Below are positions 21,212-58,137 of a stretch of 64,000 bases of DNA, piece after piece. The notes beneath the pieces were generated by a model. That model saw only the letters and a list, made by a program, of their open reading frames with translations. It ran no database searches and was not told the DNA's origin. Source of the DNA: Chloroflexota bacterium (GTDB lineage: Bacteria > Chloroflexota > Limnocylindria > P2-11E); NCBI GenBank assembly GCA_021787445.1, contig JAJYLV010000002.1, forward strand, positions 1-64,000. Reading direction: 5' to 3'. Within the stretch, counting starts at the first letter, position 1; each line of letters begins with the position of its first letter. Made by a program: the position numbers and the translations under genes.

Positions 21212-21244
21212 CGCGGCGCGATCGAAGCGAAGCTGGACGTGATG

Positions 21245-21277
21245 AAAGAGGGGCCGGCCGCCGGCCGGCCCCTCTTT
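21245..21277 (+). terminator. Intrinsic terminator-like hairpin
   Basis: aaagaggggccggcc-gcc-ggccggcccctcttt, perfect 15-bp stem ending in TTT. Confidence 0.85.
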
Positions 21278-21336
21278 CCACCCCCGGATGGCACACCCGT
21301 GATCAAGATGTCGCGTACTAGACTCGGATCGGTCAC

Positions 21337-36145: not shown

Positions 36146-36823
36146 ATGAGTAGGACGACCACGTATCTTGCGATCCTCGTCGGGATCGTCTGCGCGTGGT
36201 TCATCATCAACTCGATCCTCATCAATTCGATCCTCTTCCCCCATCCCCGGAACCTGCGGAGCGACGTGGTGCAAGGCTTCCTTATCGGCGGAGGGCTGGC
36301 GTTCGTCACGGCGCAGATCTACGCCAGGATCAAGGCCACGAAGGTCAACGGCTGGATCACCATGTTCGGCCTCGGTGACCCCGGCAACGGGATGCTGCTG
36401 CGAGCCGCGCATGCTCAGCTGTTCCCCGGCCCCGTGAACGTCCCGCAAGAGGCGATGTACTGGTGGACGAACACCGATGGCGCGGGCCACGCGCTTTCCG
36501 GAGCGCACGACTACGTCATGCACTTTCCGGCAGGCGGTCTTCCCCCGAACGAGGCGTTCTGGTCGATCACGATGGGTGATGCGAGTAACCACTTCGTGGC
36601 GAATCCGATCGACCGGTACAGCCTCAGCGATCGTTCCGGTCTCGCGCGGGACCCCGACGGCTCGGTCGATATCCGCATCCAGAACGCCGCTCCGGCGGGG
36701 CGCGAGTCCAACTGGCTGCCCGCGCCCACCGGCAAGTTCATCCTCTGGCTGCGCGTGTACATACCAGGCGAGGCCATTCTCCGCGGCGACTACACGGTGC
36801 CGCCGGTCGTCGAAGTGAAGTGA
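36146..36823 (+). CDS. DUF1214-type membrane-anchored protein
   Basis: N-terminal TM TYLAILVGIVCAWFIINSILI; FWSITMGDASNHFVANPIDRYSLSDRSGL ... DGSVDIRIQ...GRESNWLPAPTGKFILWLRVYIP. Confidence 0.8.
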   Translation: MSRTTTYLAILVGIVCAWFIINSILINSILFPHPRNLRSDVVQGFLIGGGLAFVTAQIYARIKATKVNGWITMFGLGDPGNGMLLRAAHAQLFPGPVNVPQEAMYWWTNTDGAGHALSGAHDYVMHFPAGGLPPNEAFWSITMGDASNHFVANPIDRYSLSDRSGLARDPDGSVDIRIQNAAPAGRESNWLPAPTGKFILWLRVYIPGEAILRGDYTVPPVVEVK

Positions 36824-37419
36824 CGACGAATATCGAGTACGGGCACCTACTCGTGTTCGGTTCGGTCATGGTCGCGGCGTGGTCCCTGGTCATCTACTTG
36901 TGGCCGCGCCTGCTGCTCTCCGTGTACAAGAGGGCGCTCCTCGCCAAAGGGTTCGGCGGCGGCCCCATCCCGGTCAACACGCTCCAGACGGAGTCCCAAG
37001 CGCTCTTCGCGGATCCACTTCACCCGCCCGCCTCGGCCTCAAGTCTGGCGACCACTGGCGTGAACCGCGACACGCTGCTCACGGCCGGCTGGCTGGACCT
37101 CAGGAAAGGGCCGCTCGTCTTGCACGTACCCGACATGGCCGGTCGTTACTACAGCGTGCAGTTCACGGATCCGTCGAAGAACACCGTATTCGCCTACGTC
37201 GGCAAACGCACCACGGGCACGCAGGCTGGCGACTATCTCATCACCGGCCCCGGCTGGAACGAAGCCGTACCGGACGGCGTGAAGAGGATCACCTCGCCGA
37301 ACAACGGGGTGCTCCTGATCGCACGGGTGCTCGTGGAAAGCGACGCCGACCTATCCACCGCGTACGCCCTCTCCCAGCAGATCCAGTTGTTGAAGGTCGA
37401 AAGCATCGCTCAAAGGTGA
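36820..37419 (+). CDS. DUF1254-type membrane-anchored protein
   Basis: N-terminal TM; GVNRDTLLTAGWLDLRKGPLVLHVPDMAGRYYSVQFTDPSKNTVFAYVGKRTTGTQAGDYLITGPGW. Confidence 0.8.
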   Translation: MTTNIEYGHLLVFGSVMVAAWSLVIYLWPRLLLSVYKRALLAKGFGGGPIPVNTLQTESQALFADPLHPPASASSLATTGVNRDTLLTAGWLDLRKGPLVLHVPDMAGRYYSVQFTDPSKNTVFAYVGKRTTGTQAGDYLITGPGWNEAVPDGVKRITSPNNGVLLIARVLVESDADLSTAYALSQQIQLLKVESIAQR

Positions 37420-37538
37420 GCCGCGTAGGCTCACGGAGCTACGTCGCCATGCTCGCTCTCACGGGCATCACCCTGGCGGCGACGCAGCGCTGCGCCTACT
37501 GCGTATCGTACGAGCGCACGCTGGAGATCCTCATGTGA
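37416..37538 (+). CDS. Predicted small (about 40 aa) hydrophobic protein with a CxxC motif
   Basis: GTGA overlap with DUF1254 stop: MSRVGSRSYVAMLALTGITLAATQRCAYCVSYERTLEILM; unsupported beyond overlap and frame. Confidence 0.35.
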   Translation: MSRVGSRSYVAMLALTGITLAATQRCAYCVSYERTLEILM

Positions 37539-37547
37539 AGCGCCTAC

Positions 37548-37570
37548 CGGTACGGTACAGTACCGTACCG
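37548..37570 (+). promoter_or_regulatory. Perfect inverted repeat CGGTACGGTAC-A-GTACCGTACCG; candidate TetR operator
   Basis: 11-bp perfect arms with 1-nt centre, directly abutting ATG 37571. Confidence 0.8.
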
Positions 37571-38176
37571 ATGGTAAAGACCTCCCGCGGCGATCCGTAC
37601 CTGCGGATCACGCGCGCCGCCCGACCTCTCTTCCTGCAGCGCGGCTTCGACAACACCTCCACCGACGCGATCGCGCAGACCGCGGGGGTGTCGAAGCGGA
37701 CGCTCTACCACTGCTACCCGACCAAAGACGAGCTCCTCGCCGCCGTCATGCGCGACATGACGGTCGGCCGGCTGTCATCGGCCCCCGAGCTGTCGCTGCT
37801 TCCGAACGCGACTCGCGCGACGCTCGAGCGCGTCCTGAGGGACTTCGTACGTCTCGCGATCGCACGGACCATGGATCCGGAATACGTCGATCTCCTGCGT
37901 CTCGCGATCGGGGAGAGCGGGCGACGGCCCCAGCTCGCGACGCTCCTGCGACAGGAGCTCGCCGGCGCGAAGACGCTTCGAGCGCTCCTGGTGGACGCAC
38001 GCCGGTGGAAGCTGCTGCGTGCCGACGTGAACGTCGAGGTCGCCGCGCGGATGCTGGCCGGCGCGCTTCTCACCTGGGTCGTGAGCGATGGCGCGTTCAG
38101 CCGGCTGCCCAAGCCGCCGTCGCGCGCCGTGGTCGACGAGCTGGTTCGACTCTTCCTCGCCGCGGTCGCGTCGTGA
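37571..38176 (+). CDS. TetR-family transcriptional regulator
   Basis: ITRAARPLFLQRGFDNTSTDAIAQTAGVSKRTLYHCYPTKDELLAAVM helix-turn-helix. Confidence 0.92.
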   Translation: MVKTSRGDPYLRITRAARPLFLQRGFDNTSTDAIAQTAGVSKRTLYHCYPTKDELLAAVMRDMTVGRLSSAPELSLLPNATRATLERVLRDFVRLAIARTMDPEYVDLLRLAIGESGRRPQLATLLRQELAGAKTLRALLVDARRWKLLRADVNVEVAARMLAGALLTWVVSDGAFSRLPKPPSRAVVDELVRLFLAAVAS

Positions 38177-40395
38177 CGGCGACCGAAGCGGAGCCGCTCA
38201 TCGTCAGGCTCGACGAGGCCGCCGGTCTGGCCCGATCGCTCCTCGGCGGCAAGGCCGCGAATCTCGCGCGTCTCGCGGCGGCCGGGCTCACCGTGCCTCG
38301 CGGCGTGGTCGTGACGTCCGCGGCCCGCGAGAGCTGGGATGACGCCCGGTCGCGTGTCGCCGATGCCGTCGGCCGGCTCGGGGCGGGCCCGTTCGCGGTC
38401 CGCTCCTCCGGCGTCGCGGAAGACCTCGAGGGCGCATCTTTCGCCGGGCAGTACGAGACGCTGCTCGGAGTCGCCGCGGCGGATGTTCCCGACGCCGTGC
38501 GGCACGTCCTCGACTCGGCCGCCAGCGGACGCGTGTCGTCCTACCGGGCCGCGCGGAACGATCGGGAGCCGTCCGGCGAGGCGATGGCCGTGCTGATCCA
38601 GGTCATGGTGGATGCCGACGCGGCAGGCGTGAGCTTCTCCGCGAACCCGCTCACTGGAGCACGCGATGAGGTCGTGATCACGGCCGTTCGTGGGCTGGGA
38701 GAGCGGCTCGTGTCCGGCGAGGCCGTGGGGGAGCAGTGGGTCGGCCGCGGCAGCAGCGTCGAGCGTCGCTCGGGTGACGAAGAGGCGATCGACGAGCGGA
38801 CCGCCCGCGAGGTCACGGAGCTGACGCGCCGGGTCGCGCGTCACTTCGGCGTGCCGCAGGACATCGAGTGGGCCGTTTCCGACGGCGTGCTCTACCTCCT
38901 TCAGGCGCGGCCGATGACGGCCCTGCCGGCTGCGGTCGAGTGGATCCCGCCGTACCCGGGGTGGTGGCTGCGCAACCTCCGGCTCGGAGAGTGGCTGCCG
39001 GACCCGGTGACGCCGCTCTTCGCGACCTGGCTCCTTCCGCGGCTCGACCTCGGCTACGCGGCCGCGACCGAGGAGGACATCGGCATCGCCATCGAGCCGG
39101 CGACGGCGATCATCAACGGCTGGTACTACACGACCCCGCAGGGACGCGGACCGCTCCGCGACGCGCTCTTCGAGCTCGTGCGTCGACCCCGCGCACTCGC
39201 CCGGATGATCACGCTGCTCCTGCTCGCGGGGCGCGCGCCGGAACGCGCCGATGGGCTCCTCACCACGCTCGCGACGCGCTGGCGGGAAGAGCGCCTGCCG
39301 GCATACGGCGACGCCGTGCGTGCCCGCGAGAGCGAGGCCGCGTCGGCGGGCCCGAGCGAGCTCGTCGCGGCGATCGATGAGGTCGGCGAGCTGGCGGGAA
39401 GGATCGCCTGGTCGATCGCGAGCGTCGCGGGATCGGCCTGGAAGGTCGAAGGCGCGTTCGCCCGCTTCTTCCAGGCGCACCTCTCCCGCCACATCGACGC
39501 GCCTTACCAGCGGTTGCTCATCGGCCTTCCCGGCGCCGCGCCGGGATCCGTCTCGCACGCGGTCCACAGCATCGACTGGCACTGGCCGACGGCGGTGACA
39601 CCGCCGCCCGATGCGCGGGTCCAGGAGCGCCTGCGTGCCGAGCGTGAAGAGATGGAAGCCGCCTGTCGCGCCGCACTCGCGCCGGACTCCGCGCGCCTCG
39701 CTCGGTTCGACCGCCTGCTCGAAATGGCCCAGCGCTACGCCGTCATTCGCGAGCAGCAGACCCGCTCGTTCACGCTGGGCTGGCCGCTCCTGCGCCAGTG
39801 CGCACTGCGCCTCGGGACCATGCTGTGCGAGCGCGGGGCGATCGCGAGCGCCGAGGACGTCTTCTTCCTCGAACGAGACGAGGTCTCAGCCGCGCTCGCG
39901 GCCGACGGAACGACCACCCTGCACGGAACGACGCGCGAGCGGCGCCGGCTCTGGGACGCACAGCGCCGGCTGGCCGCGCCGCTCGAGATCGGCTCGCCTC
40001 CGGCGCTCGCGCGCAGCCAGATGATCGGGACCATCGAGACGGCGCGGTCGAAGGCACCGCCGAGCGAAGGCGTGCTCGTGGGGCAGCCGGCCAGTCCCGG
40101 CCGCGCGACCGGCCGGGTCCGCATCGTGACGGGTCCGGAGGAGTTCGCGCGATTCGAGGCGGGCGAGGTGCTGGTCGCGCGAGCGACGGCACCAGCGTGG
40201 ACGCCACTCTTCTCGCGCGCCGTCGCGGTCGTGACCGACGGCGGGACGCTCGCCGCCCACGCTTCGCTCGTCGCGCGCGAGTTCGGGATCCCGGCGGTGG
40301 TCGCGACCGGCGACGCGACGCGGCGCCTCCACGACGGTCAGACCGTCACCGTCGACGGCGCGGTCGGCGTGGTCGAGGTCGAACGCGAACGCTGA
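38173..40395 (+). CDS. PEP synthase / rifampin phosphotransferase (Rph)-like enzyme: ATP-binding N-terminus and C-terminal phospho-His domain
   Basis: LGGKAANLARLAAAGLTVPRGVVVT; FAVRSSGVAEDLEGASFAGQYET; VTDGGTLAAHASLVAREFGIPAVVATGDATRRLHDGQ. Confidence 0.85.
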   Translation: MTATEAEPLIVRLDEAAGLARSLLGGKAANLARLAAAGLTVPRGVVVTSAARESWDDARSRVADAVGRLGAGPFAVRSSGVAEDLEGASFAGQYETLLGVAAADVPDAVRHVLDSAASGRVSSYRAARNDREPSGEAMAVLIQVMVDADAAGVSFSANPLTGARDEVVITAVRGLGERLVSGEAVGEQWVGRGSSVERRSGDEEAIDERTAREVTELTRRVARHFGVPQDIEWAVSDGVLYLLQARPMTALPAAVEWIPPYPGWWLRNLRLGEWLPDPVTPLFATWLLPRLDLGYAAATEEDIGIAIEPATAIINGWYYTTPQGRGPLRDALFELVRRPRALARMITLLLLAGRAPERADGLLTTLATRWREERLPAYGDAVRARESEAASAGPSELVAAIDEVGELAGRIAWSIASVAGSAWKVEGAFARFFQAHLSRHIDAPYQRLLIGLPGAAPGSVSHAVHSIDWHWPTAVTPPPDARVQERLRAEREEMEAACRAALAPDSARLARFDRLLEMAQRYAVIREQQTRSFTLGWPLLRQCALRLGTMLCERGAIASAEDVFFLERDEVSAALAADGTTTLHGTTRERRRLWDAQRRLAAPLEIGSPPALARSQMIGTIETARSKAPPSEGVLVGQPASPGRATGRVRIVTGPEEFARFEAGEVLVARATAPAWTPLFSRAVAVVTDGGTLAAHASLVAREFGIPAVVATGDATRRLHDGQTVTVDGAVGVVEVERER

Positions 40396-58094: not shown

Positions 58095-58137
58095 GCACGA
58101 GCCCGGCCGTACGGCCGGGCTCGTGCCTTTCTTCTTC
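58095..58137 (+). terminator. Intrinsic terminator of groESL
   Basis: Perfect 32-bp palindrome gcacgagcccggccgtacggccgggctcgtgc followed by ctttcttcttct. Confidence 0.92.

What the first reader, a model, noticed from the sequence alone, without database searches (positions are those of the whole stretch)
37548..37570. Perfect 11-1-11 palindrome abutting the TetR start codon
CGGTACGGTAC-A-GTACCGTACCG ends at 37570 and ATG begins at 37571, so a bound repressor would cover the ribosome-binding/transcription-start region. Such a long perfect dyad is very unlikely by chance and is what a TetR autoregulatory operator looks like. The dyad is itself built from a GGTAC/GTACC repeat.
Basis: partly seen in the sequence, partly recalled or inferred. 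Interest (0 to 1): 0.68.

Follow-up and report, generated by a model that had tools for sequence, protein, structure and literature searches.

The report
Self-control switch of a TetR gene
A short mirror-image DNA sequence just before a TetR repressor gene is almost certainly the site where that repressor shuts off its own operon, and it belongs to a family of such sites built from paired 5-letter repeats that recur beside related repressors across several bacterial phyla.

Summary
The dyad CGGTACGGTAC-A-GTACCGTACCG is exactly at 37548-37570, abutting ATG 37571, and is the only copy in the genome. Comparative evidence is strong. A sister MAG keeps all 23 bases although the DNA upstream is unrelated. 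An exact scan of 84,980 genomes gave 11 sites (about 0.2 expected), all 11 beside a TetR gene with SKR[TN]/SRRT in the recognition helix. Chloroflexota sites with 2-3 mismatches had no TetR neighbour. Orthologues show the general form (NNNAC)x2-N-(GTNNN)x2. It lies upstream of 34 of 72 TetR genes fetched after it was formulated, against 0 downstream and 0.26 in shuffles. The residue after "SK" covaries with the first repeat base (R/G, E/C, A or Q/T). The best reading is an autoregulatory operator of a tetR-PPDK/Rph-like operon, bound by two interleaved dimers 5 bp apart, like the CprB class. No binding was measured; start codon, promoter and ligand are unknown. A known kind, with a clade-wide operator grammar I did not find described in the open papers searched.

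The parts
37548..37570 (.). Operator dyad, perfect 11-1-11 palindrome; core 21 bp is 37549-37569
37549..37564 (.). Predicted site of dimer A: GGTAC-N6-GTACC (outer-left + inner-right 5-bp repeats, 11 bp centre to centre)
   Evidence: inference from 5-bp tandem structure and CprB geometry (PMC4150764)
37554..37569 (.). Predicted site of dimer B: GGTAC-N6-GTACC, offset 5 bp from dimer A (opposite DNA face)
   Evidence: inference, as for dimer A
37571..38176 (+). TetR-family regulator (TetR_N; AefR-like C-terminal domain TetR_C_7); recognition helix GVSKRTLY; alternative in-frame start GTG 37535
38173..40395 (+). PPDK_N + PEP-utilizers protein, 740 aa, Rph/RedH/PEP-synthase-like; GTG start overlaps the tetR stop (GTGA), so probably translationally coupled; likely regulated target
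   Evidence: tracks with the TetR in G000, G001 and G011 only
37523..37537 (+). GGAG (37523-37526) and GTG (37535-37537): possible alternative ribosome site and start that would place the dyad inside the coding frame
   Evidence: not preserved as such in G001

Best explanation
The dyad is the operator of the adjacent TetR/AefR-like repressor, which represses its own operon (tetR plus the PPDK_N/PEP-utilizer gene) until an unknown small molecule releases it. The operator is four copies of a 5-bp half-site, GGTAC GGTAC A GTACC GTACC. Two TetR dimers probably bind interleaved: each takes one outer repeat and the opposite inner repeat (GGTAC-N6-GTACC), the two offset by 5 bp on opposite faces, covering the transcription-start and translation-start region. 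Arg43 (counted from ATG 37571) of the recognition helix SKRTLY probably reads the first G of the repeats. Shown: sequence, position, single copy, conservation, association with TetR genes, operator grammar, residue-base covariation. Inferred: binding, repression, stoichiometry, ligand response. The confidence given is for 'operator of this TetR'; the interleaved two-dimer mode is about 0.65.
For: Sister MAG G001 keeps 23/23 dyad bases and the abutting ATG, while upstream DNA is unrelated and the TetR gene is 96% identical. Exact 21-bp pattern: 11 sites in 84,980 genomes, expectation about 0.2 (257e9/4^20); 11 of 11 have a TetR HTH within 500 bp with SKR[TN] or SRRT. In Chloroflexota, sites with 2-3 mismatches are no commoner than the reversed control, and 13 examined have no TetR neighbour. 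The framework (NNNAC)2-N-(GTNNN)2 was upstream of 53/105 distinct TetRs vs 0 downstream and 0.5 in shuffles. For the 72 fetched after the hypothesis was written it was 34 vs 0 vs 0.26. Recognition-helix residue vs inner base 1 covaries (permutation p below 1e-4, also in protein-selected loci only). In Ktedonobacteria the operator starts 0-11 nt after a consensus -10. The tetR-PPDK pair stays together in G000, G001 and G011; of 15 genomes searched for the PPDK-like protein only these three have a close homologue. CprB binds 22 bp as two dimers on opposite sides with 38.2 A between recognition helices (PMC4150764), about 11 bp; C. glutamicum McbR uses TAGAC-N6-GTCTA (PMC9210681), the same half-site form and spacing as one predicted dimer site.
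Against: No binding data. No sigma-70 promoter is recognisable near the window dyad. Only 1 of 120 Pseudomonas genomes has the dyad, so this exact sequence is rare. The SKR-to-G rule has exceptions: alphaproteobacterial NVSKRTVY uses TACAC, and Ktedonobacterial operators are GGTACGGTAC-G-GTTTAGTTTA. The counts are not corrected for phylogeny. The R/G link is partly circular in loci that were chosen by the dyad; in protein-selected loci it holds for 8 of 20 inner repeats.
Confidence: 0.88

Rival explanations
1. The palindrome acts in the mRNA: a 10-bp hairpin immediately before the AUG blocks ribosome access or serves as an attenuator.
For: RNA folding gives a 10-bp stem with a 3-nt loop directly before AUG.
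Against: The base sequence, not just the pairing, is conserved across phyla. Ktedonobacterial orthologues keep the 5-bp tandem but lose the palindrome (4 of 10 pairs), so they cannot form the hairpin. In several divergent loci the dyad lies over 100 bases from the tetR start. The folding z-score is only -2.0 and no terminator was found.
Confidence: 0.04
2. A chance palindrome in GC-rich DNA.
For: Perfect palindromes with arms of 11 or more occur about once per shuffled window.
Against: Conserved in G001 while the upstream DNA differs; 11/11 TetR association of exact copies elsewhere; out-of-sample operator grammar 34/72 vs 0.
Confidence: 0.01
3. The dyad is the operator, but is bound by one dimer, the outer repeats being a secondary or low-affinity contact (a rival to the two-dimer part only).
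For: Many TetR regulators bind about 15 bp as one dimer (PMC9210681). Some operators here have poorly matching outer repeats, e.g. AAAAC GGTAC c GTTTA GTTTT.
Against: Inner repeats are only 6 bp apart centre to centre and outer repeats 16 bp; neither fits the 31-38 A spacing of TetR dimers (PMC4150764), whereas outer plus opposite inner gives 11 bp. Tandem identity inside an arm (0.67-0.70 protein-selected; expected 0.41-0.50) is as high as palindromic identity, and survives where the palindrome is lost.
Confidence: 0.25
4. The gene starts at GTG 37535, so the dyad is an operator lying inside the coding sequence (encoding PVRYSTVP) rather than abutting the start codon (a rival to the start codon only).
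For: GGAG at 37523 is 8 nt before GTG 37535; the frame is open through the dyad in G000 and also in G001 (ATG TGC GTA CCG...). No Shine-Dalgarno sequence precedes ATG 37571.
Against: In the 49% orthologue the start is about 9 nt past the dyad, and in Dictyobacter about 25 nt past it with a Shine-Dalgarno between. The G000 and G001 sequences upstream of the dyad are unrelated apart from a few bases, and their in-frame starts are not the same codon.
Confidence: 0.3

Closest known systems
CprB (Streptomyces coelicolor) and the QacR / CgmR dimer-of-dimers operators
   Same: TetR-family; operators of 22-32 bp bound by two dimers, in CprB on opposite sides of the DNA (PMC4150764).
   Different: Different sequence; here a 21-bp site made of four 5-bp repeats in strict 5-bp register. 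Number of dimers not measured here.
McbR operator of Corynebacterium glutamicum (TAGAC-N6-GTCTA)
   Same: Same half-site form (NRNAC) and spacing as one predicted dimer site GGTAC-N6-GTACC (PMC9210681).
   Different: McbR uses one such site; here two are interleaved with a 5-bp offset.
TetR regulators of PDB 6g87/6g8g/6g8h (FrrA of Bradyrhizobium by my recollection, not verified), AefR 3cdl, NalC 8ke8
   Same: Among the closest solved relatives of the window TetR by sequence (E 6e-17 for 6g87, 2e-9 for AefR); the window protein has an AefR-like C-terminal domain.
   Different: 6g87 has SKATLY where the window protein has SKRTLY; their operators could not be read in the library.

Membership tests
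TetR/AcrR family of repressors (protein) | N-terminal TetR_N helix-turn-helix | tested here: met
   PF00440, 59.2 bits vs cut-off 24
AefR-like subgroup (TetR_C_7) | AefR-like C-terminal domain above Pfam cut-off | tested here: met
   PF14246, 28.3 bits vs cut-off 22
TetR autoregulatory operator | Inverted repeat adjacent to the tetR gene, conserved with orthologues | tested here: met
TetR autoregulatory operator | Bound by its TetR, which represses from it and is released by a ligand | not testable with these tools
   needs EMSA, footprint and reporter assays
Dimer-of-dimers TetR operators (CprB/QacR type) | Two dimers, four recognition helices per operator | not testable with these tools
   only geometry (11 bp, 5-bp offset) and tandem-repeat conservation support it
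Rifamycin phosphotransferase Rph (downstream gene) | NCBIfam NF041857 above cut-off | tested here: not met
   224 bits vs cut-off 999; best model PRK06241 266 vs 945; same domain pair, not assigned

The most novel reading that the evidence does not exclude
A large clade of TetR regulators with SK-x-T recognition helices, spread over Chloroflexota, Alpha- and Gammaproteobacteria, shares one operator grammar (NRWAC)x2-N-(GTWYN)x2 read by two interleaved dimers. A single recognition-helix residue (R, E, A or Q) largely sets the first base of the repeats (G, C, T), so operators of uncharacterised members could be predicted from sequence.
Probability: 0.55. Interest if true: 0.55.

Novelty: new member of a known kind. 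Interest (0 to 1): 0.42.

Why it matters
The site itself is an ordinary TetR self-regulation operator in an uncultured Chloroflexota lineage. The wider pattern is useful. It gives a testable operator grammar and a residue-to-base rule for many unstudied TetR regulators, which would help predict regulons and build orthogonal repressor-operator pairs. It also flags a TetR-controlled PPDK_N/PEP-utilizer phosphotransferase-like gene of unknown substrate.

Tried and rejected
Regulon search: no other site in the own genome at 3 mismatches or with relaxed outer repeats. Relaxed dyad in 400 Chloroflexota genomes: sites with 2-3 mismatches were no commoner than the reversed-pattern control and lacked TetR neighbours, so the exact dyad is not a general Chloroflexota element. 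Pseudomonas genus scan: only the one known site in 120 genomes. RNA hairpin and terminator: rejected. Literature: no open paper with GGTACTGTACC/GGTACAGTACC-type TetR operators; the operator of the likely FrrA relative was not readable; PMC10304680 matched only primers. A first recognition-helix regular expression was too strict (25 hits) and was replaced by a profile HMM. A few of the 105 'TetR' segments may be spurious HTH hits.

Full report
OBSERVATION. The dyad is exactly as described: 37548-37570, CGGTACGGTAC A GTACCGTACCG, followed at once by ATG 37571. It is unique in the genome. The claim that a perfect dyad of this length is very unlikely by chance is only partly right. The window is 70% GC, and shuffles yield about 1.5 perfect palindromes with arms of 11 or more (spacer 0-8, nested counts included); two longer ones exist elsewhere in the window. 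The case therefore has to rest on comparison.

PROTEINS. The downstream ORF is a TetR regulator with TetR_N (59 bits) and an AefR-like C-terminal domain. Its closest solved relatives are 6g87/6g8h, then SCO3833; NalC and AefR are also among them. The next gene starts at GTG 38173, overlapping the tetR stop, and encodes a 740-aa PPDK_N/PEP-utilizer protein that resembles Rph, RedH and PEP synthase but reaches no family cut-off. Of the genomes searched, close homologues of this gene occur only in those that also have the close TetR (G000, G001, G011).

SISTER GENOME. G001 (TetR 97% identical; the same site is on a contig titled Chloroflexota bacterium REEB34) keeps the dyad base for base and the abutting ATG. 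The DNA upstream is unrelated: the DUF1214, DUF1254 and 40-aa reading frames of the window are missing there and the dyad follows the Rieske-like gene directly. Homology between the two genomes resumes essentially at the dyad.

OTHER GENOMES. An exact scan of 84,980 genomes found 11 sites, one of them G001. With 20 fixed bases, about 0.2 would be expected by chance (my estimate, 257e9/4^20). All 11 have a TetR helix-turn-helix within 500 bp, and all of these have R at the third position of the recognition motif (SKRT, SKRN or SRRT). They lie in Pseudomonas, Halomonas, Marinobacterium, several Alphaproteobacteria, Dictyobacter and G001, next to different neighbours: fumarylacetoacetate-hydrolase-like genes, DHA2-like transporters, HlyD-like proteins, an ABC transporter (named here from their sequence by eye, not by a family search). 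The natural control is the set of 2-3-mismatch sites in Chloroflexota, of which none of 13 inspected has a TetR neighbour; one regular-expression hit near L045 and one near L054 are not TetR proteins.

GRAMMAR. Orthologues in Ktedonobacteria and in G011 do not keep the exact dyad but keep its construction: two 5-bp repeats ending in AC, one base, two repeats beginning with GT. Examples are CGAACCGAAC t GTTCGGTTCG (SKETLY), CGTACCGTAC g GTACGGTACT (G011, SKETLY), CATACTGTAC g GTACAGTATG (SKQTLY) and GGTACGGTAC g GTTTAGTTTA (SKRTLY). I wrote this hypothesis down and then fetched more TetR loci from Chloroflexota, Alpha- and Gammaproteobacteria. Among 72 new TetRs, 34 have the framework upstream, none in the same length downstream, and 0.26 on average in shuffled upstream DNA. 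Position 2 is nearly always a purine and position 3 mostly A or T. The residue after SK covaries with base 1 of the inner repeat: E with C (9 of 10), A with T (29 of 30), Q with T (7 of 8), R with G in 28 of 40 overall but only 8 of 20 in loci chosen by protein. This is not corrected for shared ancestry. From alignment coordinates this residue, R43, lines up with about residue 44 of CprB, the residue from which the CprB paper measured recognition-helix spacing; the residue-level alignment was not printed.

MECHANISM (inferred). Inner repeats lie 6 bp apart and outer repeats 16 bp, centre to centre; an outer repeat and the opposite inner repeat lie 11 bp apart, about 37 A. CprB binds 22 bp with two dimers on opposite sides and 38.2 A between its helices (PMC4150764). 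I therefore propose two interleaved dimers, on 37549-37564 and 37554-37569, 5 bp apart and so on opposite faces. McbR's TAGAC-N6-GTCTA (PMC9210681) has the form of one of these two sites. In Ktedonobacteria the operator begins 0-11 nt after a consensus -10 element, so bound repressor would cover the transcription start. The window has no recognisable sigma-70 promoter. With no Shine-Dalgarno before ATG 37571, a leaderless mRNA or the upstream GTG 37535 remain possible.

ALTERNATIVES. An RNA hairpin is possible on paper but is contradicted by orthologous operators that lose the palindrome and keep the tandem. Chance is contradicted by the conservation. A one-dimer mode cannot be excluded.

VERDICT. 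A real, single-copy autoregulatory TetR operator: ordinary in kind, well supported by comparison, untested by experiment. The added value is the clade-wide operator grammar and the residue-base link. I did not find it described in the open papers searched, but most subscription papers are not held, so its novelty is uncertain.

Noticed in passing
36146-37538: DUF1214, DUF1254 and a 40-aa frame lie between the Rieske-like gene and tetR in the window but are absent at this place in the sister genome G001 (11.6-kb contig): a lineage-specific insertion or loss whose right edge is next to the operator.
   Followed up: partly
58095-58126: Perfect 16-0-16 palindrome 26 bp after the groEL stop, before the end of a convergent gene: probably a bidirectional terminator.
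   Followed up: partly
21244-21278: Perfect 17-1-17 palindrome between an oligopeptide-binding protein gene and the following permease gene, with a CCTCTTTC tail on the - strand: terminator- or attenuator-like.
   Followed up: partly
38173-40395: PPDK_N/PEP-utilizer protein resembling Rph/RedH but well below every family cut-off; close homologues only in 3 of 15 related genomes searched, the same three that have the TetR. Substrate unknown.
   Followed up: partly
L044 7682 and G505:C51:25373: Pararhodospirillum oryzae has a second, 1-mismatch copy of the dyad 1.7 kb from the first, around its TetR/HlyD-like locus.
   Followed up: no
L195, L196, L211, L212, L215, L218: Alphaproteobacterial SKAT[VL]Y TetRs have the operator form TGAAC TGAAC N GTTCA GTT[CT]A.
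   Followed up: partly
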